A stretch of DNA of 64,000 bases from Devosia sp. Lineage in GTDB: Bacteria > Pseudomonadota > Alphaproteobacteria > Rhizobiales > Devosiaceae. Made by a program: the position numbers and the translations under genes. A model generated the notes under the pieces. The model was not told where the DNA came from, ran no database searches, and saw only the letters and a program-made list of their open reading frames with translations. This document shows positions 6,576 to 56,748 of the stretch, piece by piece (position 1 is the first letter of the stretch; every line of letters starts with the position of its first letter). Location: positions 62,001 through 126,000 of the forward strand of contig NZ_JAGIAW010000001.1 of NCBI RefSeq assembly GCF_017744655.1, written 5' to 3'.

Positions 6576-6645
6576 GGTGTCATTCCCGCGAAAGCGGGAA
6601 CCCCTGTTTTGAAACGGAGGTCCCCGCTTTCGCGGGGATGACACC
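6576..6645. repeat. Palindromic repeat, family A, copy 1
   Basis: The element runs from GGTGTCAT to ATGACACC and contains two hairpins, CCCGCGAAAGCGGG and CCCCGCTTTCGCGGGG, separated by a variable centre. It sits between the DUF2934 terminator and the efp stop codon. Six further copies lie in the window. Confidence 0.9.
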
Positions 6646-9518: not shown

Positions 9519-10688
9519 TTATTCGACCACGCGGGGATCGACGTCCTTGCTGTAGTCGACGCCGCCGACGGCGAAGCCGAAGAGGCGCATGAATTCTTCG
9601 CGGTACTTTGGCAGGTCGGCCAGCGCGGGTAGCGTCTCGGTGGTGAGATTGGCCCAGCGCTTTTCGAGTTCCTTCTGCATCGGGGCAGAGAGTTCCCAAT
9701 CGTCGACGCGGATGCGGCTCTCGTCGTCGAGGGCCACGTCGCCCTGCAGCTTTTCGCGGAAGAGGCGATCGATCTGGTGGATCGGGCCTTCGCCGAGGCC
9801 CATTTCGTCCTCGACCTTGATCAGCAGCGTGCCATAGAGCGGCACGACGGGGATGGCCGAGCTTGCCTGGGTGACGACGGCTTTCAATGCCACGACATTG
9901 GCGGATTTTTCGCCATGCGTTGCGCGGATCGCCTTCGCGGCGCGGTCGAGGTCGCCCTTGGCCTTGCCCAAAGTGCCCTTGTGGTAGATCGGCCAGGTCA
10001 GTTCGGAGCCGAGATAGGTGTAGTTGAGGCTGAGGAAGCCGTCAGCCAGAACGCCGGCATCGGACAGGGCCTTGATCCAGAGTTCCCAATCTTCGCCGCC
10101 CATGACCTTGATGGTCGCCTGGGCTTCTTCCTCGGTCGCCGGGTCGACGGTGATTTCGGAAACTTCGCCGGTGGCGGTGTTGAGCGTCTTGGAAGTCACC
10201 TGCTGGCCATAGGGTTTTATAGCCGAGCGATAGGTGACGCCGTCCTTGGGGTCGGTGCGGACCGGGGAGGCGAGGGAATAGACGATGAGATCGACCTGGC
10301 CGAGATTGGCCTTGATCGCCTCGATGGTCTCGGCCTTGATCGCGTCGGAGAAGGCGTCGCCTTCGATGGTGACGGCCTTGCGGCCGGCAGCGCGGGCGCG
10401 GTTTTCGAAGGCGCGGTTATTGTACCAGCCGGCGGAGGCGGGACGGTTCTCGGCCGGCTCGCGCTCGAAGGACACGCCGACAGTATCGGCATCGCTGCCG
10501 AAGGTGGTGACGATGCGCGAGGCGAGGCCATAGCCCGTCGAGCAGCCGAGCACGAGCACGCGCTTGCGATCCGAAGGAATGGCACCCTTGATGACGACGT
10601 GGTCGATCTGGTGCTGCACATTGGCGGCGCAGCCCGTGGGGTGGGCGGTGACGCAGATGAAGCCGCGGATTTTGGGCTCGATAATCAT
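9519..10688 (-). CDS. fabV: Enoyl-ACP/trans-2-enoyl-CoA reductase FabV
   Basis: FabV reduces enoyl-ACP with NADH in the last step of fatty acid elongation, and family members are usually triclosan-tolerant. The 389 residues begin with MIIEPKIRGFICVTAHPTGC. The cofactor loop LVLGCSTGYGLASRI is at 46-60. The catalytic Tyr-x8-Lys pair is Tyr235 and Lys244 in PIYHKGTLGKAK, the same positions as in characterised FabV enzymes. A GGAG site lies upstream of the ATG at 10688. It is a single gene with its own terminator. Whether a FabI also exists elsewhere cannot be told from here. Confidence 0.96.
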   Translation of the reverse strand: MIIEPKIRGFICVTAHPTGCAANVQHQIDHVVIKGAIPSDRKRVLVLGCSTGYGLASRIVTTFGSDADTVGVSFEREPAENRPASAGWYNNRAFENRARAAGRKAVTIEGDAFSDAIKAETIEAIKANLGQVDLIVYSLASPVRTDPKDGVTYRSAIKPYGQQVTSKTLNTATGEVSEITVDPATEEEAQATIKVMGGEDWELWIKALSDAGVLADGFLSLNYTYLGSELTWPIYHKGTLGKAKGDLDRAAKAIRATHGEKSANVVALKAVVTQASSAIPVVPLYGTLLIKVEDEMGLGEGPIHQIDRLFREKLQGDVALDDESRIRVDDWELSAPMQKELEKRWANLTTETLPALADLPKYREEFMRLFGFAVGGVDYSKDVDPRVVE

Positions 10689-10916
10689 GGGATTTTCTCC
10701 TCGATCTTAAGAAGCCAATAGCGGGATTGGCGGCCGAGTTCCAGTCAGTGCGTCAGGTTTTGCCCGTTCGACAGGGGGATACCTGAAACTGTGCTGGTGC
10801 TTGAGCAGCAAGCTTTTCCACAATTGCGGTGTGTTCAAGGCTGGTTCGTGACCGGGCTCTGCTGTCCTATTCGAGCCGAGTCGGGCCCCAAAGCTGACAA
10901 CTCGAAGAGGCAATTC

Positions 10917-12032
10917 ATGTCCCAGGTCACCCTTCCGCTGCCCAATCGCTCGCTTGCTATCGGCAAGCGGCCGTTTTCCATGCCGGCGGCGTTCCTCTTT
11001 ACGGTCGTCATGTTGACGGGTCTGGCGCTCGGCCTTGTCTGGTGGCAGGGGCCGGGCCTGTGGCGCGATTGGCAGATCAATCAGGACCCACGCACGGTGG
11101 AGGATTGGGATCTGCGCGACGGCGAATGCAGTTCGCGCCGCGGGCTCACCGATTGCGAGGCTGATATTACCTATCGCGTCGATGGGCAGAGTTTTGAGAA
11201 GCATATCTCGCTGGCCTTCCTCGATTTTTCGAGCGGCGACTACATGGTCGACGTGGTGATTTCGCGCGACGATCCGGAACTGGCGACGCTGAGCCTCGGG
11301 CTCGACATGCTGTGGAACCGACTGGCGGTTTTTGCTGTGTTCATGCTGCTCTTTGGCGGTGGTGCCATTGCGACCATCATTACGGCGCTGAAGGCAGCCG
11401 GTGCCAATCGTGCGGCGGCGACGCCGGGGCGGTTGACGGTTGTGCCGGTTGACGTGGTCGAGGTGAAGAATGGGGTGGTTTCCTATGTCGACCATCTCAA
11501 GGGGCGCTCGAAGCGTACGACGCGGACGCATTTCGCCAAGGGGCAGGAGCCGCTGATCGGGCTCGACGAGACGGGCAAGCCGGTTGGCGTGGCGGTCAAG
11601 CTTGAGCATGTGGCCATTCCGGTGCTGCTTGATCGCAATCTTGAGCGCGTGGAACTGACCGATATCGAACGTGAGCAGGCGCTGGCGGCCTTCCATGCCG
11701 AGCAGGAACAGCGTGGCGCTCGGCTGGCGGCCAACCCGCCGCCGAAGGCGAAGCGCGGGCCTAATATCGTGCGTGGACTGCTGGCGGGTGGCACCGTGCT
11801 GGTGCTGGCCGTCGTCGCCTTCTTCGGCTTCTGGCTTTACTATGTCACTGTGGCGCCGGACGCCTTTGATGCGGTTGGCATCGAGATCAATAATATCATG
11901 CCTGAGCCGCTCAATACCTGGGGCTGCGAGCAGCTTTATGCGCGGTTTGGCGACGGCAATGCGCCCTATGGCTGTACGGCCGATGACTATGTGAGCTGGA
12001 AGGTCGCCAAGACCGCGAGCAAGGTGAAATGA
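10917..12032 (+). CDS. Unknown three-helix membrane protein
   Basis: Family not recognised. From the ATG at 10917, preceded by AGAGG, the product has 371 residues. Likely membrane helices are at about 24-43 (AAFLFTVVMLTGLALGLVWW), 137-157 (RLAVFAVFMLLFGGGAIATII) and 280-302 (GLLAGGTVLVLAVVAFFGFW). The segment between helices 1 and 2 has a Cys pair (GECSSRRGLTDCEADITY) and the C-terminal tail another (WGCEQLYARFGDGNAPYGC), which suggests extracytoplasmic disulfides. The region between helices 2 and 3 is polar and probably cytoplasmic. It stands alone between fabV and a bidirectional terminator. Confidence 0.75.
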   Translation: MSQVTLPLPNRSLAIGKRPFSMPAAFLFTVVMLTGLALGLVWWQGPGLWRDWQINQDPRTVEDWDLRDGECSSRRGLTDCEADITYRVDGQSFEKHISLAFLDFSSGDYMVDVVISRDDPELATLSLGLDMLWNRLAVFAVFMLLFGGGAIATIITALKAAGANRAAATPGRLTVVPVDVVEVKNGVVSYVDHLKGRSKRTTRTHFAKGQEPLIGLDETGKPVGVAVKLEHVAIPVLLDRNLERVELTDIEREQALAAFHAEQEQRGARLAANPPPKAKRGPNIVRGLLAGGTVLVLAVVAFFGFWLYYVTVAPDAFDAVGIEINNIMPEPLNTWGCEQLYARFGDGNAPYGCTADDYVSWKVAKTASKVK

Positions 12033-12034
12033 CA

Positions 12035-12062
12035 AAGGGCGCCGCGAGGCGCCCTTCTTTTA
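12035..12062. terminator. Terminator between convergent genes
   Basis: AAGGGCGCC pairs with GGCGCCCTT around a GCGA loop, followed by CTTTTATT on the plus strand. It overlaps the stop codon of the GST-like gene on the other strand and could serve both genes. Confidence 0.8.
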
Positions 12063-12704
12063 TTCCTTGGCACGACCAGCCGGGAAAATGCCGGACATGA
12101 CCGTAAAACCTGGGACGCGGCGGACGCGGTCCGTCCAGCGGCGAAGGGCGGGATAATCCTGACGGGAAATGCCGCCTTCTTCGCTCAGCATCACATAGGG
12201 GAAGCAGGCGATGTCGGCGGTGGTCGGATGGCTCGGAGAGCAGAGCCAGTCGCGGCCAGATTTTTCGCCGAACCAGAGGTGCTCATCCATCAGGCGGAAA
12301 ATGCGATGGGCGCCCTTTTGGGATTTCTCGATGTCGAAATTGTAGCCATAGCCGAGCGCGAGACGGGCGGCAGATGAGGTCGAGGTGATGTCGTCGGCAA
12401 CCGAATGCCAGCGCAGCACTTCGGCAGTGACGGCTGGATCATCGGGGAACCATTTTCCGGACGTGTCGTACTTTTTCGCCAGATAGGCGAGGATGGCGCC
12501 GGAATCCGAGAGGGTGAGCTCATCGTCCTTGAGCACTGGCAACTGGCCGAAGGGGTTCATGCGCAGAAACCAGTCCGCCTTGTGCTGGCGGCCGGGGAAG
12601 AAGTCCACCGGCACGATCTCGAAGGGCAGGTTGAGGATATTCATGAGCAGCCGCAGCTTGTAGCAGTTGCCCGAGAGCTCGAAGTCGTAAAGCGTTATGG
12701 TCAT
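12060..12704 (-). CDS. Glutathione S-transferase-like protein (NdmE-type partner candidate)
   Basis: A 214-residue cytosolic protein with a GST thioredoxin-like N-domain (TITLYDFELSGNCYKLRLLMNIL; MNPFGQLPVLKDDELTLSDSGAILAYLAKKY) and an all-helical C-domain (HPTTADIACFPYVML; YPALRRWTDRVRRVPGF). The Ser11 region could be the glutathione-activating site. The gene starts two bases after the stop of the Rieske-reductase fusion, so they are co-translated. In the caffeine N-demethylase system of Pseudomonas putida, the GST homologue NdmE holds an oxygenase lacking its own Rieske domain (NdmC) and the Rieske-bearing reductase (NdmD) together. The same three gene types are adjacent here, so a structural rather than catalytic role is a reasonable inference. 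Confidence 0.85.
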   Translation of the reverse strand: MTITLYDFELSGNCYKLRLLMNILNLPFEIVPVDFFPGRQHKADWFLRMNPFGQLPVLKDDELTLSDSGAILAYLAKKYDTSGKWFPDDPAVTAEVLRWHSVADDITSTSSAARLALGYGYNFDIEKSQKGAHRIFRLMDEHLWFGEKSGRDWLCSPSHPTTADIACFPYVMLSEEGGISRQDYPALRRWTDRVRRVPGFTVMSGIFPAGRAKE

Positions 12705-12706
12705 TA

Positions 12707-14413
12707 TCAGATATCCAGCACGAGGCGGCCAGATTTGGCGCGGCTGACACAGGTCATCATGCAGGTGTTGGAGGCCTTCTCGGTCTTGTTGAGATAGACG
12801 TCCTGGTGGTCGACCTCGCCCTCCATGACCGTGGTGAGGCAGGTGCCGCAGGCGCCTTGCTCGCAGGAGGAGGGGACAGTCAGGCCGGCTTCGCGCATGG
12901 TTTCGATGATGGTCTTGCCGGCGGGGACGTGGAGAGTCATGGCCGAGCGAGCGAGTTCGACGTCGAAGGCCGACGAACTATCGATCACCTTGTCGTTCTG
13001 GAAATATTCGAAGTGGATCGCATCGTCGGGCCAGCCGAGCGAGGCCGCGGTTTCCTGCACCATTTCGAGCATGGCGCCGGGGCCGCAGATATAGACGTGA
13101 TTGGCGAATTGGTATTGGCCGAGCACTTCGGCGATCTTGGCCTTGATGGCGTCGCGGGCGAGGCCGATGTGGCGGTCGAGCTTGCCATGGAGCGCGGCGA
13201 GTTCGCTCTGGAAGGCAAGGCCGTCACCGGTGCGGGCAAAATAGTGCAGCTCGTAGTTGAGGCTCGACTTGTCGAGGAAGCGGGCCATAGACAGGAGCGG
13301 CGTGATGCCGATGCCGCCGGCGATGAGCACGGTGCGGGTGGCGTCGCGGCGCAGTGGGAAATTGTTGCGTGGCTCGGAAATGGCGAGGACGTCGCCCTCG
13401 CGGACGGTTTCGACGAGAACTTTTGAGCCACCTTTGCTGGCGCTCTCCTGTTTGACACCGATAACGTAGCTCGAGAGATCGCCGGGGCCGTTGGTGATCG
13501 AGTATTGTCTGATCAGGCCATTGGGAAGGTGCACGTCGATATGGGCGCCGGGCTGGAAGGTCGGCAGGTGTTTTCCGTCACGGTCGGCCAGCTCGAAGCC
13601 GATGACGCCATCGGCTGATTTCCACTTGCGCTTGACCACGACGGGCATTGTGTTGCCGCGCGGAATGGCGATGTCGGGCATGGAGGCGAGATCGGCCGAG
13701 ACCTTTTCGAAGACCGGCTGCAGTGGTTCGGGCGCCGGCTTTTTCGCTGCGGCGCGTTCGAGGCGGTCACGCAGCTTGGTCAGGGTTTCGTTGTAGTGGC
13801 GGAGGGTCGCCACTTCGTCGGCGGGCTTTTCGATCAGGCCACGGATGACGGCGCGGCCGGCATCGACGGGCTGGACGAAATAGATCGTTGTGCCAAGGCG
13901 CAGCGCCATGCCGGGGAGGAGGTCGGCCGGCTGGTCATCGGGGGCGAGGCCGGCAAGGCCGGCGAGTACGTCTTCGGGCGCGGCATTGACCGGCATGGGA
14001 CGCAGCGGGAACCAGTCGGAGTTTTCGGCGCCAGCGAAGGGCGCAAATTTCTGGTCGTCATTGGCGGCGGACCAGATAAGGCCGAAGGCCTCTTTGACCG
14101 GATATTTGCGGTTTTCGATGCGGCGAGCCGGGGCATCGGCGGGGTGGGCCGGGATATAGGTGCAGCCGGCCGATTGATTGGCATAGCGCCAGCCATGGTA
14201 CTGGCACTTTAGCTCCTGGCCTTCATTGATGCCGATGGAGAGGCGCACGCCGCGATGCAGGCACCGGTTTTCCCAGACGTTTACATTGCCATCATCGGCG
14301 CGCCAGACGGCGAGCTCACGGCCGAGCAACTGGCCCTGATAGACGTGGCGGAACGGCAGGTCCTCGCTCGAAGCGATGGGATACCAGGTGGGGTCTGAGA
14401 GGGACAGGGGCAT
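12707..14413 (-). CDS. Rieske-FNR-ferredoxin fusion reductase (NdmD-like)
   Basis: A 568-residue electron-transfer protein with three modules. An N-terminal Rieske [2Fe-2S] domain has Cys51-x-His53 and Cys70-x2-His73. After a linker (about 130-250) comes a flavin/NADH oxidoreductase domain with RQYS at 302-305, AGGIGITPL near 365-373 and CGPG at 443-446. The C-terminal plant-type [2Fe-2S] domain has Cys517, Cys522, Cys525 and Cys555. Ordinary Rieske-oxygenase reductases lack the N-terminal Rieske domain; NdmD of caffeine degraders has exactly this order. I start at the ATG at 14413, though a TTG at 14428 is also possible. The adjacent oxygenase gene lacks Rieske ligands, so this protein probably supplies the missing cluster. 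Confidence 0.9.
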   Translation of the reverse strand: MPLSLSDPTWYPIASSEDLPFRHVYQGQLLGRELAVWRADDGNVNVWENRCLHRGVRLSIGINEGQELKCQYHGWRYANQSAGCTYIPAHPADAPARRIENRKYPVKEAFGLIWSAANDDQKFAPFAGAENSDWFPLRPMPVNAAPEDVLAGLAGLAPDDQPADLLPGMALRLGTTIYFVQPVDAGRAVIRGLIEKPADEVATLRHYNETLTKLRDRLERAAAKKPAPEPLQPVFEKVSADLASMPDIAIPRGNTMPVVVKRKWKSADGVIGFELADRDGKHLPTFQPGAHIDVHLPNGLIRQYSITNGPGDLSSYVIGVKQESASKGGSKVLVETVREGDVLAISEPRNNFPLRRDATRTVLIAGGIGITPLLSMARFLDKSSLNYELHYFARTGDGLAFQSELAALHGKLDRHIGLARDAIKAKIAEVLGQYQFANHVYICGPGAMLEMVQETAASLGWPDDAIHFEYFQNDKVIDSSSAFDVELARSAMTLHVPAGKTIIETMREAGLTVPSSCEQGACGTCLTTVMEGEVDHQDVYLNKTEKASNTCMMTCVSRAKSGRLVLDI

Positions 14414-14504
14414 GTCGATCAGATCCAAAGTACAGGGATCGCGCCACGATCGAATATTTGGTCACAAACCGCCCTGGCGTACGGGGCGGGTTCGTTTTTG
14501 GGCC

Positions 14505-15401
14505 TTAGGAGGCCTGCGGGATCACGCCGTAGGTGATGCCCTTCTGGCTCAGCCAGCGGCGGTAGGCGATGGCCGACTTGTCGGCGCGGATCGGGGTTTC
14601 CGAGCGCGGGTCGAGCGGCAGTTTCTTGGGGTACTGGTTTTCGAGGATCGGCTTGTCCTGGCCGAAGATCGTCTGCTGGAAGCGGCGCAGGTCGGTCACG
14701 GTCGAATAGGAGTCGATCATCGACTGCAAGAGGTGCGCGCGGCAGGTTTCTTCGGTCATGGGCTGAAGGAAAATGCCGATGACGTCGCGGCGGTTTTCAT
14801 CCTCGGGGCACGACTTGTAGAGGACCGAGCAGAAAGGGTGCGGCACGCGGTAGACATATTCGACTTCCATCGCGCCCGTCGCCGACTTGGCGGCCATGGG
14901 CTGGATGAACTTGCACTTGGTGGCCAGGACTTCGTCGCGTTCTTCGGAAACCTCGACGTCGTATTCCTTGACCTCGGTATGCGGCTCGGAGCCCAGAATG
15001 TCGGTGTGGACATAGGGGAAGTGGCCCATGTCGAGGAAGTTTTCGACCGCGCGAGGGGCGGAGACGTGGATGCCGATGGAGCCGCAGCTCATATTGGTGC
15101 GGTCGGCCTCGGCATATTCCGGGATCGGAAAGAGTTCGGCGGACGGGGTGCCGAGACAGGTCCAGGTGTAGCCATAGGCGGTGCGGACGGGGAGGCGGTC
15201 GAGCACGGTTTCGGCGTCGATCTCGTCGCCGGTTTCCTCGTCGCTCGCGAGCCATACGACCGGCTCGCCATCGAGGCCGCGCGTCAGGGCGATGCGGCGG
15301 TCGAGCAGGAGCGTCGTTTCGACGAGGCCGATGGCGAGTTCATCGGTCGCGGCGACGACGTGCCAAAGGTCGTTGGTAATCTGATCGGGGGCTTTGGGCA
15401 T
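14505..15401 (-). CDS. Rieske-oxygenase alpha-subunit homologue without a Rieske cluster (NdmC-like)
   Basis: The 298 residues contain an intact mononuclear iron catalytic domain: ENFLDMGHFPYVHTD gives Asn121, Asp124, His127 and His132, and GQDKPILENQ gives the probable third ligand Asp249. The N-terminal part keeps the edge of a Rieske fold (DLWHVVAATDEL; LLLDRRIALTRGLDGEPVVWL; YGYTWTCLGTP), but the roughly 50 residues that should carry the CxH and CxxH ligands are replaced by about 20 acidic residues (SDEETGDEIDAETVLDR). It therefore needs electrons from an external Rieske centre, most likely the fusion reductase at 12707. The frame extends upstream into a family A repeat; the ATG at 15401 is the realistic start. 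Substrate unknown; an N- or O-demethylation is a guess from NdmC. Confidence 0.88.
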   Translation of the reverse strand: MPKAPDQITNDLWHVVAATDELAIGLVETTLLLDRRIALTRGLDGEPVVWLASDEETGDEIDAETVLDRLPVRTAYGYTWTCLGTPSAELFPIPEYAEADRTNMSCGSIGIHVSAPRAVENFLDMGHFPYVHTDILGSEPHTEVKEYDVEVSEERDEVLATKCKFIQPMAAKSATGAMEVEYVYRVPHPFCSVLYKSCPEDENRRDVIGIFLQPMTEETCRAHLLQSMIDSYSTVTDLRRFQQTIFGQDKPILENQYPKKLPLDPRSETPIRADKSAIAYRRWLSQKGITYGVIPQAS

Positions 15402-15521: not shown

Positions 15522-15594
15522 GGTGTCATTCCCGCGAAAGCGGGAATCCCTGTTGAAAGGAAACGGAGGTTCCCGCTTTCGCGGGAATGACACC
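15522..15594. repeat. Palindromic repeat, family A, copy 2
   Basis: Runs from GGTGTCAT to ATGACACC with the CCCGCGAAAGCGGG and CCCGCTTTCGCGGG hairpins. It occupies the divergent promoter region between the NdmC-like gene and the Ldh-family gene. Confidence 0.9.
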
Positions 15595-15623
15595 GTGGCT
15601 AAAACGGGGTGAGGGAGAAACCA

Positions 15624-16658
15624 ATGACTGACGAACTATCGCCGCGCTTTGCCGAGGATCTGGTGCGGAGCCGCGTCGAGGCGCGATTGGCCGAGGCCGG
15701 CGCGAGCGAGGGTTCGCGGGCGGCGGCGATCAAGGCGATGATCCATGCGTCGCTGGTGGGTGTTGATAGCCACGGCGTGCGGTTGACTGGCCACTATTGC
15801 AAGATGCTGGGTGGCGGGCGGCTGAACAAGAACCCGCAGTTGAAGGTGGAAAGCCGCGGCGCGGGGAGCGCCATGGTTCATGGCGATGATGGGGTTGGGC
15901 ATTATGCGGCTTACAAAGCCGTCGAGGTCGGGATCGAGCTGGCGCGGCAGGCTGGTGTCGGCGCGGTGGGCATAAAGCATTCCTCGCATCTGGGTGCGGC
16001 AGGCGCTTATGCGCTGGCGGGGGCGGAGCAGGGTTTTGTCACCTTTGCGACCACCAATACCGACTCCATGGTGGCGCTCTATGATGGGGCGCAGAAGTTC
16101 CACGGCACCAATCCTCTGGCCTTTGCCGCGCCGGTGCCGAATGCGCGGCCGTGGTTGCTCGATATGGCGACCTCGTCCATTCCGCTCAACCGCGTGCTGC
16201 TGCATCGCTCGCTCGACAAGGTGCTTCCAGAGGGCGTTGCCGCGACGCCGGATGGCCAGCCGACGACCGATCCGCATGAAGCCGACATGCTGCTGCCGCT
16301 CGGCGGGGTGGACTATGGCTATAAGGGCGCGGCGCTGGCCGGGGTGGCTACGCTGTTCTCGGCGCTTCTTACAGGCACGACGCTCGATCCCGATTTCATC
16401 CCCATGTATGGCGGCGACGATATTTCTACGCCACGGAATATGGGGCATTTCGTACTGGTGATCGATCCCGACAAGTTTGCCGGGCGCGCAGTTTTTGCGG
16501 CGGCGATTGGGAGCTATCTCGAAAGTCTGCGGGGGTCGCGGGTGCGGACCGGCGGGCGCGTGATGGCGCCGGGGGATCGGGAATGGGAAGAGATGGATCG
16601 GCGGAAGGCTGAGGGGATTCCGGTTGATCCGGATACGGTGAGGTTTTTGGGGCTGTAG
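15624..16658 (+). CDS. Ldh/AllD-family NAD(P)-dependent oxidoreductase
   Basis: A 344-residue member of the malate/L-lactate/ureidoglycolate dehydrogenase family (YlbC, AllD, ComC, YiaK), which reduces 2-keto acids or oxidises 2-hydroxy acids and has a fold distinct from classical MDH. Visible family segments are SLVGVDSHGVRLTGHY with the catalytic-type Asp-Ser-His, GVGAVGIKHSSHLGAAGAYA, ATTNTDSMV, HGTNPLAFAAP and the MGHFVLVIDPDKF motif. The ATG at 15624 has GAGGGAG upstream; an in-frame GTG at 15609 is less likely. It is divergent from the NdmC-like gene. The actual substrate cannot be assigned. Confidence 0.9.
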   Translation: MTDELSPRFAEDLVRSRVEARLAEAGASEGSRAAAIKAMIHASLVGVDSHGVRLTGHYCKMLGGGRLNKNPQLKVESRGAGSAMVHGDDGVGHYAAYKAVEVGIELARQAGVGAVGIKHSSHLGAAGAYALAGAEQGFVTFATTNTDSMVALYDGAQKFHGTNPLAFAAPVPNARPWLLDMATSSIPLNRVLLHRSLDKVLPEGVAATPDGQPTTDPHEADMLLPLGGVDYGYKGAALAGVATLFSALLTGTTLDPDFIPMYGGDDISTPRNMGHFVLVIDPDKFAGRAVFAAAIGSYLESLRGSRVRTGGRVMAPGDREWEEMDRRKAEGIPVDPDTVRFLGL

Positions 16659-21872: not shown

Positions 21873-21944
21873 GTCATTCCCGCGAAAGCGGGAATCCCTG
21901 TTTGTGTGCGAAACAAAGATCCCCGCTTTCGCGGGGATGACACC
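21873..21944. repeat. Palindromic repeat, family A, copy 3
   Basis: GTCATTCCCGCGAAAGCGGG to CCCCGCTTTCGCGGGG and ATGACACC. It lies 20 bp after macB and may act as its 3' mRNA structure. The following 270 bp up to tamA contain no other gene I can support. Confidence 0.9.
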
Positions 21945-22215: not shown

Positions 22216-24084
22216 TTGTGCATCGCCGCGGCCTCCTTGGCTGTGGCGGCTCCTGCGCATGGTTTTGAGCTGTTCGGCTTCAAGTTTTTCGAGGACGAGA
22301 CTCAGGATGCGGTGATCATTGATCCGCAGAACTATGTCGTCACGTTCTCTTCGACGCAGACTGGCGCCGTCGAAAATGCGGCGCGCAATGCTTCCTCGCT
22401 CGTGGCCGATCAGGGTGAGCCGGCTTCCGGCGTTGCAGGGCTTCTGGCCAAGGCGCGCGGCGACTACAGGCGCATCATCGCGGCTCTCTACAATGAGGGC
22501 CATTACGGCGCCGCCATCAGCATCCTCATCGGTGGCGTCGAAGCTTCCAAGCTGGCGCCCGATGCGCGGCTGCCCAATCCGGTCGATGTGAGTGTTTCGG
22601 TCGATCCCGGCCCGCTCTTTACCTTCAATAGCGTCAACATCGCCAACCAGGCGCCCGCGACCAGCGATCCCGATGACCAGGTCGATCTGCCGGTGCTGCG
22701 CGGTTTTGGTGCCGGGCAGGTGGCGCGCTCTTCGGTGATCCTTGCGGCCGAGCAGCTTGCGGTTCAGGCCTGGCAGCAGCAGGGCTATGCCAAGGCCGAG
22801 ATCACTGGCCGCGATGTCGTCGCCAACCATGCGAACAACACCGTAGATGTGACCATCAACGTCAATCCGGGGCGCCTCGCGGCGTTTGGCGATATCACGG
22901 TGACCGGCACCCAAAACATGAACCCGGAATTCGTGCGCCAGCAGACCGGGCTTGCCGTGGGTCAGGAATATGATCCCGACGACCTGACGCGTGCACAAAA
23001 ACGTCTCGACCGTCTCGAAGTGTTCCGGGCGGCGCGTTTCCAGGCGGCGCAGGATATTTCGCCCGATGGCCTGCTGCCCTATGAGCTGCTGGTCGAGGAA
23101 TTGCCCGGCCGCCGCTTTGGTGCGGGCGCTACATATTCCACCATTGACGGTCTCGGCGTCGAAGGTTTCCATCTCTGGCGCAATCTCTTCGGGCAGGCCG
23201 AACGGCTGCGGCTCGATGCGCGCGTCGCCAGCATTGCCTGGCCCATCGATACCGCCCAGTTCGACTATATGTTCGGCGGCACCTTCACCAAGCCAGGCTT
23301 TCTTACTCCCGATACCGATCTCGTCGCCGCCATCGCAGCCGAGCGCACGATCTATCCGACCTATACGGAAACATCGGCACAGGCGCGTCTGGGTCTCACG
23401 CACTATTTCTCGGATGAACTGACGGCCGAGGGCGGCGTGGTTTATGAGCGCGCACGCTTCGACGACGTCTTCGGTACCCGCGATTTCTCGACCCTCGGCA
23501 TCTATGCCGGCGCGACCTTTGACGGACGCGACAGCACGGTCGATCCGACCGAGGGTTGGTATCTCGCGGGCAATGCGGAGCCCTACTACGACTTTTCCTT
23601 CGAAAAGATGGGGCTGCGGCTCACCGCTGAAGCCCGCACCTATTTTGGCTTCTCCGAGGACGACCAGTTCGTGCTGGCCGGCCGCGTTAAGGCCGGTGCA
23701 CTGCTCGGCCCAGCACTCAATGAAATCGCGCCGGACAAGCTGTTCTTTGCCGGTGGCGGCGGCTCGGTGCGCGGCTATGCGGTCAAGTCCATCGGCGTCG
23801 ACGATGGCAAGGGCGGCGTGACCGGCGGACGTTATCTGCTCGAAGCCTCGCTTGAAGCGCGGGCCAAGGTGACCGAAAGCATTGGCGTCGTCGGCTTTGT
23901 CGATGGTGGCTATGTCGCGGCGGATACCTTCCCGAGCCTTGATGAACTCCGCCTCGGCGTTGGCGCCGGCGTGCGCTACTATACCGGGCTCGGCCCGCTG
24001 CGCCTCGACGTAGCCATTCCGCTCAACAAGCGGGCGGGCGATCCGGACTATGCTATCTATGTCGGCATCGGGCAGGCTTTCTGA
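22216..24084 (+). CDS. tamA: TamA-type BamA-family outer-membrane protein
   Basis: TamA is a 16-stranded outer-membrane barrel with periplasmic POTRA domains, working with TamB in moving proteins or lipids to the outer membrane. The 622 residues include POTRA-like segments (VDVSVSVDPGPLFTFNSVNI; AAFGDITVTGTQNMNPEFVRQQTGL) and a barrel with the conserved GGGGSVRGYAVKSIG loop (VRGY motif), ending in GIGQAF with a terminal Phe. The start is problematic: no ATG or GTG is in frame after the stop at 22159. A TTG at 22216 gives a signal peptide without a basic n-region, while CTG at 22180 would give LQSARWVSSIGALCIAAASL. Its stop overlaps tamB by one base. Confidence 0.9.
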   Translation: MCIAAASLAVAAPAHGFELFGFKFFEDETQDAVIIDPQNYVVTFSSTQTGAVENAARNASSLVADQGEPASGVAGLLAKARGDYRRIIAALYNEGHYGAAISILIGGVEASKLAPDARLPNPVDVSVSVDPGPLFTFNSVNIANQAPATSDPDDQVDLPVLRGFGAGQVARSSVILAAEQLAVQAWQQQGYAKAEITGRDVVANHANNTVDVTINVNPGRLAAFGDITVTGTQNMNPEFVRQQTGLAVGQEYDPDDLTRAQKRLDRLEVFRAARFQAAQDISPDGLLPYELLVEELPGRRFGAGATYSTIDGLGVEGFHLWRNLFGQAERLRLDARVASIAWPIDTAQFDYMFGGTFTKPGFLTPDTDLVAAIAAERTIYPTYTETSAQARLGLTHYFSDELTAEGGVVYERARFDDVFGTRDFSTLGIYAGATFDGRDSTVDPTEGWYLAGNAEPYYDFSFEKMGLRLTAEARTYFGFSEDDQFVLAGRVKAGALLGPALNEIAPDKLFFAGGGGSVRGYAVKSIGVDDGKGGVTGGRYLLEASLEARAKVTESIGVVGFVDGGYVAADTFPSLDELRLGVGAGVRYYTGLGPLRLDVAIPLNKRAGDPDYAIYVGIGQAF

Positions 24085-27000
24085 TGATGCCGCTTGTGAA
24101 GAAAAAATACCGCCGCGTTGCCCTGGCTTCGCTCGTTCTCGTGCCGCTGATCGGGGTGCCCGTGGCGCTCGTCGCGCAGGACAATTCCGATGACGCGCAG
24201 AAGGACTGGCTGACCGGTTTCGTCGAAGGCCAGCTTTCGACGCCCGAGCGGCAGATTCGCCTGTCTAATATCGATGGCGCGCTCGGCTCGGATGTGTCGA
24301 TCCGCGAGATCACCATTGCCGACCAAGAGGGAGTGTGGCTGCGGGTCAATAATGCGAGCCTCAACTGGAGCCAGGCCGCGCTCTTTACCGGCCGGTTGCA
24401 GGTCAATTCGCTCAAGGCCGAGTCGATCGACTATATCCGCAATGCCGTTCCGGCCGAGGGCGTCGATCTGCCGCCGCCGGAAGCAGGCAGTTTTTCGGTG
24501 CCGGAATTTCCGGTGGCCATCAATATCGGCGAACTCTCGGTGCCCCGCGTCACCTTCGGAGACGGCGTCTTTGGCCTCGGTTCGGAGATTTCGCTCGCCG
24601 GCAATCTGGCGCTTGAAGGCGGCAATCTGAACACCGCGCTCGATATCGCGCGCCTCGACGGGCCCGGCGGTACGCTCAATCTCGACGTGTCCTATGTGCG
24701 CGAAACCAATGAGATCGACCTGAAATTCGATCTCAACGAGCCGGAAAACGGCGTACTCGCCAATCTCCTCAATATCGAGGGGCGCCCGGCCATGCAGCTC
24801 ACCCTTGCGGGGCAGGGGCCGGTGGCGGATCTGCGCGCCGACCTGAGCCTGCTCGCCAATGGCCAGACCGCGCTTGCCGGCGTTTCGACCATCAATCAGA
24901 CGGCGGAAGGCTTTGCCGTGGACGCCGATCTCGGTGGTCCGCTTTCCATGCTCATGGCCGAACAATATCGGCCCTTCTTCGGCAACGATACGCGGCTGTC
25001 GCTCAATGCCCTGGTGCGCAGCGCCGGTGGCATCGAACTCAACGATCTGTCGCTGACCGGCGGGCAACTGGCGCTGCAGGCCAATGCCAGCACGACGGCC
25101 GACAATTTCCTCTCGCGCCTCGACCTCAAGGCTTCCATTGCCGACCCGGCTGGCGGCCTCGTCCTCTTGCCCGCTTCCGGGGCGCCGCAGGTGCAGGCTG
25201 CGCAACTCACGGTCGATTTCGGCCGCGACGGTTCGGAGGACTGGAGCGCCGATCTGGGCATCGACAAGCTGATCACCGGCGATTTCTCGGCCGAGCGCGT
25301 CGGCCTTGCCATCAATGGGGTTGCGAGCAATCTCTCCGATCCCCTGACGCGCATGATCACCTTCAATGGCGACGGTACGCTTTCCGGCATTGCCGGCGAG
25401 GAAGCGGTGGAAGCCGCGCTTGGCGACAGTGTCGGCCTCGGTATTGCCGGGCTCTGGAATGCCGGCCAGCCGATTGAACTGGCACAGTTGCGCATTGTGG
25501 GCGAAGCGCTGACGGCGGGGCTTTCGGGTGTCATCGATGGCGGCGCTTTCCGCGGCCGCATCGGTGTCGAGACCGGCAGCATCGCTCCCTTTTCCGGCCT
25601 TGCGGAGCGCGAACTGACCGGCGGCCTCTCGCTCGACGCCGAAGGCTCCGTTGCCTTTGTCGGCGGCGCGTTTGACCTGACCTTTGCAGGCTCGGGCCGC
25701 AATCTCACCATCGGCGATGAAACCGCCGACAAGCTGCTGGCCGGCGATGTGGCACTGTCCGGGCGCCTTGCCCGCACCGAAGCCGGCATCGTCGCGGACG
25801 ATTTTTCTCTTACCAATCCGCAGGTGCAGTTCACCGCCGACGGTGTCTATGGCACCAGTCAAGCCGATTTCGCCATCGGGCTCGATCTCTCCGATCTCGG
25901 CCTCCTCACCGATCAGGCCTCCGGCGCGCTCGTCGTGCGCGGCACGGCGAAATCGGCATCGGCCGATGCGCCGGTCGCTCTCGTGCTCGATGCGACGGTC
26001 GCCAATGGCAATCTCGTCGGCCGTAACCTCCGCGATGCGCAGGTCGGCCTCGATCTCTCGCTGCTGCAGGGGAACCTGACCGGCCGCATCAGCGGCGAAG
26101 CCATGCTCGATGGCCACCGGGCGACGCTCACCTCGCAGGTCGTCTCCGACACGGCGCAGCAGGCACTCAACAATCTCGATTTCGAAATTGCCGGCACACG
26201 TGTCTTTGGCTCAGTCAGCCGCGCGGTCGATACGCAATTGCTGAATGGCCGACTTGATGTCACCGCGTCCGACATATCGCTTGCGGCCGCACTGCTGCTC
26301 ACCGAAGCCTCGGGCAGCATCAATGCGGCGCTGGCCCTGTCGCCGGTCGATGGCGTACAGCAGGCTGGGCTGACCGCGAACGCGACCAATTTGAAAGTCA
26401 ACGACATTGCCGTTGGCCGCGCCGAGATCAGCGCTACGGCGGTCGATCTCTTCGGCGTTCCCGCGCTCAATGGCACGGTCACGGCCGGTAGTGTCGTTGC
26501 CGCCGGCACCACGGTCAACACGCTCAATGCGCGCGCCAGCCAGAGCGGGGATACGACGAGCTTTGAGGCTCGGGCGGCCCTCGCGACCGGCACCAGCGTC
26601 GATATCTCCGGGGGCCTTGCCCCGGTCGAGGGTGGCTATCGCCTGGCGCTCGATCGTGCCGATCTCACCCAGGGCAGCATTGCCGCGCGTCTTGCCAATC
26701 CCACCACCTTGCTGGTGCAGGGCAATAGCGTCGCTCTTGATGCGCTGCGCTTCGATGTGGGCTCGGGCAGCCTCACCGCTTCGGGCACGGCGGGCGAAAC
26801 GCTGGCGCTCAATGTCAGCATTGCCTCCCTGCCACTCTCCATCGCCAATACCGTGGTGCCTAGCCTCGGTCTTGCCGGTACGCTCGATGGCACGGCGGTC
26901 GTCTCGGGTTCGGCCTCCAATCCGCAGGTGCGGTTCGATGCGCGCGGCAGCGGCATCGATGCCGCCGCCATCCGGTCCTTCGGCATTGCTCCCATTGGCC

Positions 27001-28415
27001 TCACTGTCGCCGGTTCCTATGCCGGCAATAGCGTCGCCATAGAGCGGCTTTCGGCCAATGGCGCGGCTGGCCTCAATGTCACAGGTTCGGGCCGTGTGCC
27101 GCTGTCGGGCGGCGGGCTTGCCGTGACGCTCACGGGCTCGGCGCCGCTGGCGCTCGCCAATCGCTTCCTCGTCGATCGCGGCGGCCAGTTTTCGGGCATG
27201 GCCAATTTCAACGCCGATGTGTCGGGCAGCATCGCCGCCCCGCAATTCGGTGGCTCCGTGTCGATCAATGGCGCAGGCTATGTCGATCCCGAACTCAATC
27301 TGCGCCTCACCGACATTACCGGCCGCGCCACGCTTGCCGGCACCTCGGCGCGCATCGAAAGCCTCACGGCCAATCTGGCGACCGGCGGCAATGTCTCGGC
27401 CTCGGGCACGGTCGGGCTTTCCGGCCAATTCCCGGCGGACCTCCGCGTCTCGCTCAATTCGGCCCGCTATTCGGATGGCGAAATCTTCCTCGCCACGGTT
27501 TCTGGCGGCCTGACGTTGACCGGCAATCTCGCGGTTACACCCCTGCTGGCCGGTACGCTCAATATCGAGAATGCCAATATCACCGTGCCGGAAGGCTTTG
27601 GTGGCGGTACGCCGCTGATCGATGTCACCCATGTGGCGACACCTCCCGCGGTGAAGCAGACCCTGCAGCGTGCCCGCATCGATGCGGCCGGTGCGCCGGT
27701 ACCGCAGACCCGCTCGTCCGGCCTCCTGCTCGATGTGACCGTCAACGCGCCCAACCAGATCTTCATTCGCGGCCGTGGGCTCGATGCCGAAGTCGGCGGT
27801 TCGGTGCGCCTTGCCGGGCCTCTCAGCAATATCCAGCCGGTCGGCGCCTTCTCGCTCAATCGCGGCCGCCTCTCCGTCCTCGGCCAGCGTCTCGATTTCG
27901 AAACGGGCACCGTGACCATGCTGGGCGATCTCGACCCCCAGCTCTATTTCGTGGCGCGGACCGAGGGCGATGGCATCACGGTGTTCGTCACCATTGCAGG
28001 CCGTGCCTCGGCACCGGAAGTAACATTCACCTCCAATCCGAGCCTGCCGCAGGACGAAGTGCTGAGCCGCCTGATTTTCAAGCGCTCCATGGGCGAATTG
28101 ACGCCGTTGCAATTGGCGCAGCTTGCCGGCGCAGCCGCCGAACTCGTTGGCGGCGGTGGCGGCGGTCTCGTCGACGGGCTGCGTGGCGCGGCCGGTCTTG
28201 CCGACCTCGATGTCGTCACCGACGCGCAGGGCAATGTGGGCGTGCAGGCCGGCACTTACCTGCAAGACAATATCTATCTTGGGGTCACCGCCGGAGCGAA
28301 TGGCCAGTCCAAGGTGACGATCAACCTCGACGTCACCAATGACCTTGTGGTGCGCGGCACGGCCGGTCAGAATGGTGACTCAAGCGTGGGTGTGTTCTAC
28401 GAACAGGACTATTGA
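24084..28415 (+). CDS. tamB: Translocation and assembly module subunit TamB
   Basis: TamB is a long inner-membrane-anchored periplasmic protein, AsmA-like, whose hydrophobic-groove beta structure spans to TamA. Of 1443 residues, 10-32 (RRVALASLVLVPLIGVPVALVAQ) form the membrane anchor. The body is repetitive beta sequence rich in Gly, Ala, Leu and Asp. The C-terminal DUF490/TamB domain is clear: GRLSVLGQRLDFETGTVTMLG, SNPSLPQDEVLSRLIFKRSMGELTPLQLAQLA and the final SSVGVFYEQDY. Start and stop both overlap neighbouring genes by one base (24084; 28415), so tamA, tamB and the methyltransferase are coupled. Confidence 0.95.
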   Translation: MMPLVKKKYRRVALASLVLVPLIGVPVALVAQDNSDDAQKDWLTGFVEGQLSTPERQIRLSNIDGALGSDVSIREITIADQEGVWLRVNNASLNWSQAALFTGRLQVNSLKAESIDYIRNAVPAEGVDLPPPEAGSFSVPEFPVAINIGELSVPRVTFGDGVFGLGSEISLAGNLALEGGNLNTALDIARLDGPGGTLNLDVSYVRETNEIDLKFDLNEPENGVLANLLNIEGRPAMQLTLAGQGPVADLRADLSLLANGQTALAGVSTINQTAEGFAVDADLGGPLSMLMAEQYRPFFGNDTRLSLNALVRSAGGIELNDLSLTGGQLALQANASTTADNFLSRLDLKASIADPAGGLVLLPASGAPQVQAAQLTVDFGRDGSEDWSADLGIDKLITGDFSAERVGLAINGVASNLSDPLTRMITFNGDGTLSGIAGEEAVEAALGDSVGLGIAGLWNAGQPIELAQLRIVGEALTAGLSGVIDGGAFRGRIGVETGSIAPFSGLAERELTGGLSLDAEGSVAFVGGAFDLTFAGSGRNLTIGDETADKLLAGDVALSGRLARTEAGIVADDFSLTNPQVQFTADGVYGTSQADFAIGLDLSDLGLLTDQASGALVVRGTAKSASADAPVALVLDATVANGNLVGRNLRDAQVGLDLSLLQGNLTGRISGEAMLDGHRATLTSQVVSDTAQQALNNLDFEIAGTRVFGSVSRAVDTQLLNGRLDVTASDISLAAALLLTEASGSINAALALSPVDGVQQAGLTANATNLKVNDIAVGRAEISATAVDLFGVPALNGTVTAGSVVAAGTTVNTLNARASQSGDTTSFEARAALATGTSVDISGGLAPVEGGYRLALDRADLTQGSIAARLANPTTLLVQGNSVALDALRFDVGSGSLTASGTAGETLALNVSIASLPLSIANTVVPSLGLAGTLDGTAVVSGSASNPQVRFDARGSGIDAAAIRSFGIAPIGLTVAGSYAGNSVAIERLSANGAAGLNVTGSGRVPLSGGGLAVTLTGSAPLALANRFLVDRGGQFSGMANFNADVSGSIAAPQFGGSVSINGAGYVDPELNLRLTDITGRATLAGTSARIESLTANLATGGNVSASGTVGLSGQFPADLRVSLNSARYSDGEIFLATVSGGLTLTGNLAVTPLLAGTLNIENANITVPEGFGGGTPLIDVTHVATPPAVKQTLQRARIDAAGAPVPQTRSSGLLLDVTVNAPNQIFIRGRGLDAEVGGSVRLAGPLSNIQPVGAFSLNRGRLSVLGQRLDFETGTVTMLGDLDPQLYFVARTEGDGITVFVTIAGRASAPEVTFTSNPSLPQDEVLSRLIFKRSMGELTPLQLAQLAGAAAELVGGGGGGLVDGLRGAAGLADLDVVTDAQGNVGVQAGTYLQDNIYLGVTAGANGQSKVTINLDVTNDLVVRGTAGQNGDSSVGVFYEQDY

Positions 28416-37769: not shown

Positions 37770-37837
37770 ATGTCACCCCCGCGAAAGCGGGGGCCTCTGT
37801 TTCAAACGGAGGTTCCCGCTTTCGCGGGAATGACACC
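37770..37837. repeat. Palindromic repeat, family A, copy 4
   Basis: Begins ATGTCACCCCCGCGAAAGCG and ends GCTTTCGCGGGAATGACACC. It is a variant with an extra C in the left hairpin, lying between the Omp19-like terminator and zapE. Confidence 0.9.
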
Positions 37838-42337: not shown

Positions 42338-42408
42338 GGTGTCATTCCCGCGAAAGCGGGAACCCCTATTTGGTAACGGAGGTCCCCGCTTTCGCGGGGA
42401 TGACACGG
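42338..42408. repeat. Palindromic repeat, family A, copy 5
   Basis: GGTGTCATTCCCGCGAAAGC to CCCCGCTTTCGCGGGG and ATGACACGG. It begins 13 bp after sucD and is likely part of the 3' structure of the sucCD message. Confidence 0.9.
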
Positions 42409-50808: not shown

Positions 50809-50872
50809 GTCATTCCCGCGAAAGCGGGAATCCTTGGCAGGTGAGGGAGATCCCCGCTTTCGCGGGAATGAC
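50809..50872. repeat. Palindromic repeat, family A, copy 6
   Basis: GTCATTCCCGCGAAAGCGGG to CCCGCTTTCGCGGGAATGAC, with a divergent centre. It starts 20 bp after lpdA. Confidence 0.9.
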
Positions 50873-56677: not shown

Positions 56678-56748
56678 GGTGTCATCTCCGCGAAAGCGGG
56701 GATCTTCGTTTTGAAACGGGGATTCCCGCTTTCGCGGGAATGACACGG
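56678..56748. repeat. Palindromic repeat, family A, copy 7
   Basis: GGTGTCATCTCCGCGAAAGC to CCCGCTTTCGCGGGAATGACAC. It separates the uronate operon from the convergent gene at 56760. Confidence 0.9.

What the first reader, a model, noticed from the sequence alone, without database searches (positions are those of the whole stretch)
12060..15401. NdmCDE-like three-protein oxygenase system outside its known setting
Three adjacent minus-strand genes encode an oxygenase with only the mononuclear iron site, a Rieske-FNR-ferredoxin fusion reductase and a GST homologue. This is the set known as NdmC, NdmD and NdmE in caffeine-degrading Pseudomonas putida, where the complex N7-demethylates 7-methylxanthine. 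Here there is no ndmA or ndmB and no xanthine gene nearby, so the substrate may differ. Seen: domain motifs and gene order. Known: the role of NdmCDE. Inferred: that these proteins form a complex and demethylate something.
Basis: partly seen in the sequence, partly recalled or inferred. Interest (0 to 1): 0.85.

Follow-up and report, generated by a model that had tools for sequence, protein, structure and literature searches.

The report
Split Rieske demethylase, probably purine-directed
Three neighbouring genes in a Devosia soil bacterium encode a relative of the caffeine-degrading NdmCDE enzyme complex; such gene sets were already known from rhizobia, and their neighbours elsewhere suggest that they strip methyl groups from methylated purines rather than serving caffeine alone.

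Summary
Three co-directional genes encode an oxygenase with only the mononuclear iron site (NdmC-like, 298 aa), a Rieske-FNR-ferredoxin reductase (NdmD-like, 568 aa) and a GST homologue (NdmE-like, 214 aa). They are 42, 35 and 56% identical to C, D and E of a Pseudomonas putida caffeine cluster.

The setting is not new: a 2015 review citing Summers 2013 already reports ndmCDE clusters of unknown function in Sinorhizobium and Mesorhizobium.

What I add: C is in 59 of 75 genomes of the genus. Of 47 related loci outside the Devosia core group, 36 have a BMP-family transporter gene best matching the one this genome keeps with xanthine dehydrogenase-type, urate oxidase and guanine deaminase genes; 4 more have another BMP type; 20 have glutathione-dependent formaldehyde genes, 19 right after the GST gene. 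A sister form has a stand-alone Rieske protein. NdmC keeps an eroded Rieske domain, NdmD a short stretch resembling an eroded catalytic domain.

Best reading: an NdmCDE-type oxidative N-demethylase of methylated purines. Substrate unproven; 0 of 33 Devosia core-group loci have such a marker beside the cassette.

The parts
14505..15401 (-). NdmC-like oxygenase: mononuclear iron site only
   Evidence: VanA_C hit, no Rieske hit; predicted fold like full Rieske oxygenases, SxtT 7szh Z 27.4, rmsd 2.6, 274 aligned
15126..15401 (-). Eroded Rieske domain of NdmC (residues 1-92), with the cluster-binding loops missing
   Evidence: profile match to the Rieske domain of D, probability 97, E 1e-10, with a 37-column gap over the CxH...CxxH part
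15006..15041 (-). Segment N121-H132 with D124, H127, H132 (bridging Asp and two iron ligands)
   Evidence: invariant in 49 sequences, positions checked; roles recalled
14655..14657 (-). D249, third iron ligand
   Evidence: invariant in 49 sequences; role recalled
12707..14413 (-). NdmD-like fusion reductase
   Evidence: Pfam Rieske, NAD-binding and Fer2; 35% to the caffeine-cluster D over 595 columns
14060..14389 (-). Intact Rieske domain of NdmD (CLH...CQYH)
   Evidence: Pfam Rieske 67.4 bits; ligands invariant in 36 rows
13745..13924 (-). Candidate remnant of an oxygenase catalytic domain in NdmD (last strands and helix, residues 164-223)
   Evidence: profile score 36.6 against the NdmC catalytic part vs at most 22.0 in 200 column shuffles, 19 aligned columns; strand-strand-helix in the model
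12710..13660 (-). Phthalate dioxygenase reductase-like FNR + [2Fe-2S] ferredoxin
   Evidence: 2pia Z 33.5, rmsd 3.9, 310 aligned, 40% id
12060..12704 (-). NdmE-like GST homologue
   Evidence: GST_N and GST_C; 56% to the caffeine-cluster E; G205 kept in 101 of 101 aligned E proteins
15525..15591 (.). Inverted pair of a short palindromic repeat just upstream of ndmC (not part of the enzyme)
   Evidence: 138 copies of the 20-base core in the genome, 0 in the reversed control

Best explanation
The three genes encode an NdmCDE-type split Rieske monooxygenase. NADH reduces the flavin and plant-type ferredoxin of NdmD; the electrons pass to the Rieske cluster of NdmD, which docks where NdmC has lost its own Rieske loops and hands them to the mononuclear iron of NdmC. 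The iron activates O2 and hydroxylates an N-methyl group, which leaves as formaldehyde. The GST homologue holds the two halves together. The most likely substrate class is a methylated purine (a methylxanthine or methylguanine), whose demethylated product enters the guanine/xanthine/urate pathway that this genome has. Shown here: the domains, the conserved ligand residues, the gene order, and the purine-type and formaldehyde neighbours in relatives. Inferred: complex formation, electron path, and the substrate class in Devosia. Taken from print for P. putida: the NdmCDE complex and N7-demethylation of 7-methylxanthine.
For: Architecture and ligands. Fold. Relation to a caffeine cluster. Context in relatives: of the 47 loci outside the Devosia core group, 36 have a BMP binding-protein gene whose best match among three BMP proteins of this genome is the one beside xanthine dehydrogenase-type, urate oxidase and guaD genes; 4 more have another BMP type (one of these also an xdhA-like match); 20 have a formaldehyde gene, all 20 among those 40. 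The match to S-(hydroxymethyl)glutathione dehydrogenase begins 52-128 bp after the GST match in 19 of 47. One representative each passes the curated cut-offs TIGR02818, TIGR02821, TIGR02820. The closest non-Devosia cassettes (L030, L031; 78% C) lie beside a transporter whose components are 72-79% identical to that of this genome's purine cluster, and their C falls inside the Devosia clade. A guanine deaminase form beside C in L058, L064, L088 is 54-61% identical to a second guaD of this genome but only 30-32% to its canonical guaD. Across 347 genomes of the order, C (55, E up to 1e-50) and that guaD form (31, E up to 1e-100) occur together in 21, Fisher p 5e-12; without the genus 16 of 335 have both, p 7e-10. 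The own genome has guaD, urate oxidase, FrmA and FghA above cut-off.
Against: None of the 33 Devosia core-group loci has a purine or formaldehyde marker beside the cassette, nor has the window. Of the 47 others, 7 have no purine-type neighbour either (L039, L047, L053, L057, L061, L070, L072), and in 4 the BMP gene is of another type. Within the genus, C and the guaD form are not significantly associated (23 both, 36 C only, 3 guaD only, 13 neither; p 0.15), and urate oxidase is in 73 of 75 genomes, so it does not discriminate. The purine assignment of the transporter rests on its neighbours in one genome, not on binding data; the only NCBIfam hit for three such binding proteins scanned is a putative B6 transporter model far below cut-off (48-58 of 400 bits). 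The order-level test counts genomes, which share ancestry. The tree does not place the window C with the proven N7 enzyme (nor is that rejected, p-AU 0.13).
Confidence: 0.6

Rival explanations
1. It is an N7-demethylase of 7-methylxanthine, the same reaction as in P. putida, taking up methylxanthines from plant matter. (A special case of the best explanation, so the odds overlap.)
For: 42/35/56% identity to the caffeine-cluster C/D/E; methylxanthines are the only substrates named in the passages I read.
Against: No NdmA or NdmB relative in the window apart from C and D themselves, and C as query found only itself in the own genome (NdmA and NdmB were not used as queries there). The caffeine NdmC groups, weakly, with other clades than the window's (support 78 with the upstream paralogue).
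Confidence: 0.3
2. It hydroxylates a purine ring instead of removing a methyl group, like the Rieske xanthine hydroxylase HpxDE.
For: Purine-type neighbours in relatives; proteins annotated HpxD are distant relatives of C (25-27%).
Against: Formaldehyde genes follow the GST gene directly in 19 of 47 loci outside the Devosia core group; this genome has molybdenum xanthine dehydrogenase-type genes, so a second xanthine hydroxylase would be redundant.
Confidence: 0.08
3. In Devosia the cassette has been recruited to an unrelated N- or O-methyl substrate, since it stands outside the purine context.
For: 0 of 33 Devosia core-group loci have purine markers beside the cassette; the neighbours there are an SDR and often a malate/lactate dehydrogenase family gene.
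Against: The nearest non-Devosia copies (L030, L031), nested in the Devosia clade, sit beside the purine-type transporter.
Confidence: 0.22
4. The GST homologue is a working glutathione enzyme, for example one that traps the released formaldehyde, rather than a scaffold.
For: S11 of the E proteins is kept in 97 of 100 aligned; glutathione-dependent formaldehyde genes are neighbours in relatives.
Against: The (D/E)S motif of glutathione binding (role recalled) is kept in only 5 of the 11 E sequences printed; a structural role is proposed in print.
Confidence: 0.1

Closest known systems
NdmCDE of Pseudomonas putida CBB5 (7-methylxanthine N7-demethylase)
   Same: Same three proteins, domain architecture and gene order; E is a GST homologue; iron ligand residues and cluster cysteines and histidines shared with the caffeine-cluster set L085.
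   Different: Only 42, 35 and 56% identical to C, D and E of L085, a cluster with close relatives of the solved CBB5 NdmA and NdmB; no ndmA, ndmB, nucleobase symporter or formaldehyde genes in the window; activity untested.
ndmCDE homologues of Sinorhizobium and Mesorhizobium (function unknown, noted in PMC4408171)
   Same: C-D-E order; C about 60-65% identical.
   Different: Four annotated Sinorhizobium stretches have a divergent GntR regulator and BMP transporter; 34 of the 47 loci outside the Devosia core group have a second NdmC-like gene just upstream and 20 of 47 formaldehyde genes. The window cassette has none of these beside it.
NdmA / NdmB (N1- and N3-demethylases) and SxtT/GxtA
   Same: Catalytic fold; C aligns from the Rieske region to the C-terminus (Z 22-27).
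   Different: They carry their own Rieske cluster; C does not.
Phthalate dioxygenase reductase (2pia)
   Same: FNR and ferredoxin part of NdmD (Z 33.5, rmsd 3.9, 310 aligned, 40% id).
   Different: The matched chain has no Rieske domain or catalytic-domain remnant in front.
Stand-alone Rieske + NdmC-like + GST clusters (L088-L090, L112-L119, L126, L127)
   Same: NdmC-like oxygenase without Rieske, and a GST; BMP transporter in 12 of 13.
   Different: The Rieske protein is not fused to a reductase; 12 of 13 lie beside a guanine deaminase or related deaminase, 8 of them chosen for that. None of the listings and passages that I saw describes this form (only one search was aimed at it; one library).

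Membership tests
NdmCDE-type split Rieske oxygenase | Oxygenase subunit without Rieske cluster but with the mononuclear iron site | tested here: met
   by sequence and predicted fold
NdmCDE-type split Rieske oxygenase | Reductase with an extra N-terminal Rieske domain | tested here: met
NdmCDE-type split Rieske oxygenase | GST homologue encoded with them | tested here: met
NdmCDE-type split Rieske oxygenase | The three proteins form one complex | not testable with these tools
   only single chains can be predicted
7-methylxanthine N7-demethylase (NdmCDE of CBB5) | Converts 7-methylxanthine to xanthine | not testable with these tools
   needs an enzyme assay
7-methylxanthine N7-demethylase (NdmCDE of CBB5) | C groups with the caffeine-cluster NdmC | tested here: inconclusive
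   separate clade in the tree, but grouping not rejected (p-AU 0.13)
Caffeine N-demethylation cluster | ndmA and ndmB beside ndmCDE | tested here: not met
   NdmA and NdmB of L085 match only C and the Rieske part of D in the whole window
Purine catabolic cluster | Purine uptake or catabolic genes adjacent | tested here: not met
   no marker in the window or beside 33 Devosia core-group cassettes; purine-type neighbour in 40 of the 47 other loci

The most novel reading that the evidence does not exclude
NdmCDE-like systems are a widespread bacterial route for salvaging or burning methylated nucleobases from RNA and DNA turnover, such as 7-methylguanine: taken up by the BMP transporter, deaminated by the second guanine deaminase form, demethylated by the split Rieske enzyme with release of formaldehyde, and fed into xanthine and urate breakdown. 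The caffeine enzyme would then be a specialised offshoot. The system arose by complementary erosion of two Rieske oxygenases, one keeping the iron site (NdmC), the other the Rieske cluster (stand-alone Rieske protein, elsewhere fused to a reductase as NdmD).
Probability: 0.25. Interest if true: 0.75.

Novelty: new member of a known kind. Interest (0 to 1): 0.48.

Why it matters
The ndmCDE homologues outside caffeine degraders have had no assigned role in the passages I could read. Their neighbourhoods give a concrete, testable substrate class and a natural reason for such a demethylase to be common in soil and root bacteria that may rarely meet caffeine. The stand-alone Rieske form and the complementary remnants would offer a view of how an enzyme can divide its electron-transfer and catalytic domains between proteins.

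Tried and rejected
Novelty by location: rejected, since PMC4408171 (passages) already reports homologous clusters in Sinorhizobium and Mesorhizobium. Adjacent Ldh_2 gene (15609-16658) as an allantoin-pathway ureidoglycolate dehydrogenase: 203 bits against a cut-off of 356, not assigned. The ORFs at 10707-12035 (-) and 10791-12032 (+): no Pfam hit, left out. FabV (9519-10688) is a fatty-acid gene and not always next to the cassette in Devosia. Pfam and NCBIfam scans of the window covered chosen ORFs between 33 and 34370 only; for the whole window I used the marker proteins.

Within-genus association of C with the guaD form: not significant. Tree test of the caffeine NdmC with the window clade: not rejected; so I claim neither N7 orthology nor its absence. 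The fold search with NdmD was filled by reductases and said nothing about its middle part; the remnant there rests on a 19-column profile match with a shuffle control, a weaker first match (probability 52) and secondary structure. The Rieske part of the NdmD model is of low confidence (residues 51-99). Promoter scan: 1 found, 0.6 expected; terminators 7 found, 3.1 expected; not used. ABC-transporter ATPase hits in 19 of 33 Devosia core-group loci are all the MacB neighbour and were not counted as purine markers. No paper on 7-methylguanine breakdown by a Rieske enzyme appeared (listings only; one library). Counts of neighbours are lower bounds, as many loci end at contig ends. In one search two rows with long branches (L123, L124) have an unsure place; they were left out.
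Full report
OBSERVATION. The three genes are present as described: NdmC-like 14505-15401, NdmD-like 12707-14413, NdmE-like 12060-12704, all on the minus strand, with 91 bp between C and D and 2 bp between D and E. Pfam gives C a VanA_C domain and no Rieske domain; D a Rieske, an oxidoreductase NAD-binding and a Fer2 domain; E GST domains. Residues that I read as iron and cluster ligands (roles recalled) are invariant: D124, H127, H132, D249 in 49 C sequences; C51, H53, C70, H73 and C517, C522, C525, C555 in 36 D sequences (positions checked).

HOST AND SPREAD. The window belongs to a 4.4-Mb Devosia-like genome (nearest C in Devosia riboflavina, 99%). C was found in 59 of 75 genomes of its genus (56 of 68 of good quality) and in 55 of 347 sampled genomes of its order at E up to 1e-50. 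The genome has one copy of C and one full-length NdmD; a second D match is a weak one of 76 residues. A scan of named genomes confirmed 255 relatives and kept the best 80. In 77 of these 80, C, D and E lie in this order on one strand; in the other three the held contig ends too early.

RELATION TO THE CAFFEINE ENZYME. A P. putida plasmid (L085) carries close relatives of the solved NdmA and NdmB (764.6 and 785 bits) and an ndmCDE set. The window proteins are 42% (C), 35% (D) and 56% (E) identical to that set. So this is the NdmCDE kind. It is not new in alphaproteobacteria: PMC4408171 (passages read) reports 18 further organisms with homologous ndmCDE clusters, predominantly Sinorhizobium and Mesorhizobium, of unknown function. 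PMC13237722 (first of two parts read) and PMC8055839 (passages) call the role of NdmE structural; [quoted passage not shown]

HOW THE SPLIT WORKS. The N-terminal part of C is a worn Rieske domain: its profile matches the Rieske domain of D (probability 97, E 1e-10), with a 37-column gap that removes the cluster-binding loops. The predicted C structure (mean pLDDT 83.5, pTM 0.85) aligns with whole Rieske oxygenases from the Rieske region to the C-terminus (SxtT Z 27.4, rmsd 2.6, 274 aligned; NdmA 6icn Z 23.3, rmsd 3.2, 266 aligned). Its low-confidence parts include the iron site region (129-139, 258-272). D, in turn, has between its Rieske and reductase parts a stretch resembling the last strands and helix of the catalytic domain: profile score 36.6 against at most 22.0 in 200 column shuffles, over 19 columns, with matching strand-strand-helix in the model. 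I read this as complementary erosion of two oxygenases, one keeping the iron, the other the Rieske cluster. The second half of this claim is the weaker one.

CONTEXT OUTSIDE THE DEVOSIA CORE GROUP. I split the 80 loci into the Devosia core group (33: L002-L029, L032-L036) and the other 47, which still include three loci titled Devosia with a different neighbourhood and one MAG locus nearly identical to one of them (L039, L061, L070, L072). Of the 47, 36 have a BMP binding-protein gene whose best match among three of this genome is the one of the purine cluster described below; 4 have another BMP type only (L067, L069, L071, L079; L071 also has an xdhA-like match); 7 have no such neighbour. Formaldehyde genes are found in 20 of 47: the match to S-(hydroxymethyl)glutathione dehydrogenase begins 52-128 bp after the GST match in 19, S-formylglutathione hydrolase occurs in 7 and S-(hydroxymethyl)glutathione synthase in 2. 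One representative of each passes the curated cut-off. 34 of 47 have a second NdmC-like gene just upstream of the main one.

LINK TO PURINES. The window's own genome has, about 112 kb from the cassette, xanthine dehydrogenase-type genes (by Pfam), a BMP transporter, urate oxidase and canonical guanine deaminase in one cluster (L108). The two closest non-Devosia cassettes (L030, L031; 78%) sit beside a transporter whose components are 72-79% identical to that one, and their C falls within the Devosia clade. The transporter components of three other cassettes compared (L058, L064, L083) are 39-52% identical to it and match it best among the systems fetched; those of L088 and L089 are mostly nearest to it but at 33-50%, the ATPase of L088 being nearer to another system; L067 is mostly nearest to others or only weakly alike. 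A guanine deaminase beside C in L058, L064 and L088 resembles a second guaD of this genome (54-61%), which lies in a cluster with a nucleoside hydrolase and another BMP transporter (L106), and not the canonical one (30-32%). In 347 genomes of the order, C (55) and this guaD form (31) occur together in 21 (p 5e-12), and in 16 of 335 after removing the genus (p 7e-10); genomes are not independent. Within the genus there is no significant association (p 0.15).

A SPLIT FORM. In L088-L090, L112-L119, L126 and L127 (13 stretches) the Rieske protein is separate (216-271 aa, starts uncertain) and no NdmD-type reductase was found in the stretch, while C and a GST remain; L124 and L125 have a separate Rieske protein and a separate reductase. 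Eight of the 13 stretches were chosen because guaD lay near, so they are not an unbiased sample. The 14 split-form C sequences used (L125 left out as too short) are one side of a branch in the tree (support 84).

AGAINST. None of the 33 Devosia core-group loci has a purine or formaldehyde marker beside the cassette, nor does the window hold one. The tree does not settle whether the window C is nearest to the proven N7 enzyme (p-AU 0.13). No substrate has been tested. The transporter's purine role is inferred from its neighbours.

VERDICT. A real, conserved NdmCDE-type split Rieske oxygenase; known in kind, new as a core trait of this genus as far as I saw. Most likely it demethylates a methylated purine. 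The bold reading, a general route for methylated nucleobases such as 7-methylguanine, is open and testable.

Noticed in passing
window 6579-6598, 15525-15591, 21873-21892, 37815-37834, 42341-42360, 50809-50872, 56725-56744: A short palindromic repeat (core GTCATTCCCGCG-AAGCGGG), often in inverted pairs about 45 bp apart, with 138 copies in the genome and none in the reversed control. One pair lies just upstream of ndmC.
   Followed up: partly
L106/L107 (G000:C1:105000-130958): A second purine-type cluster in the window's genome: nucleoside hydrolase, BMP transporter, adenine deaminase-like protein, a non-canonical guanine deaminase and further deaminase-family genes.
   Followed up: partly
L083, L079 and others: 34 of 47 loci outside the Devosia core group: A further NdmC-like gene lies just upstream of the main ndmC, in L067, L069, L071 and L079 yet another farther upstream: perhaps enzymes for other methyl positions or partners in a mixed complex, as NdmA/NdmB are listed to form.
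   Followed up: no
L012:9078-10783: NdmD of Devosia aurantiaca matches in two overlapping pieces, a possible frameshift or sequencing error.
   Followed up: no
window 12035-12056 and 14469-14489: Terminator-like hairpins on the + strand beside E and between C and D; the C-D gap is longer in most Devosia core-group loci than in most others.
   Followed up: no
window 22216-28415: Omp85-family (22216-24084) and TamB-like (24084-28415, 1443 aa) genes side by side.
   Followed up: no
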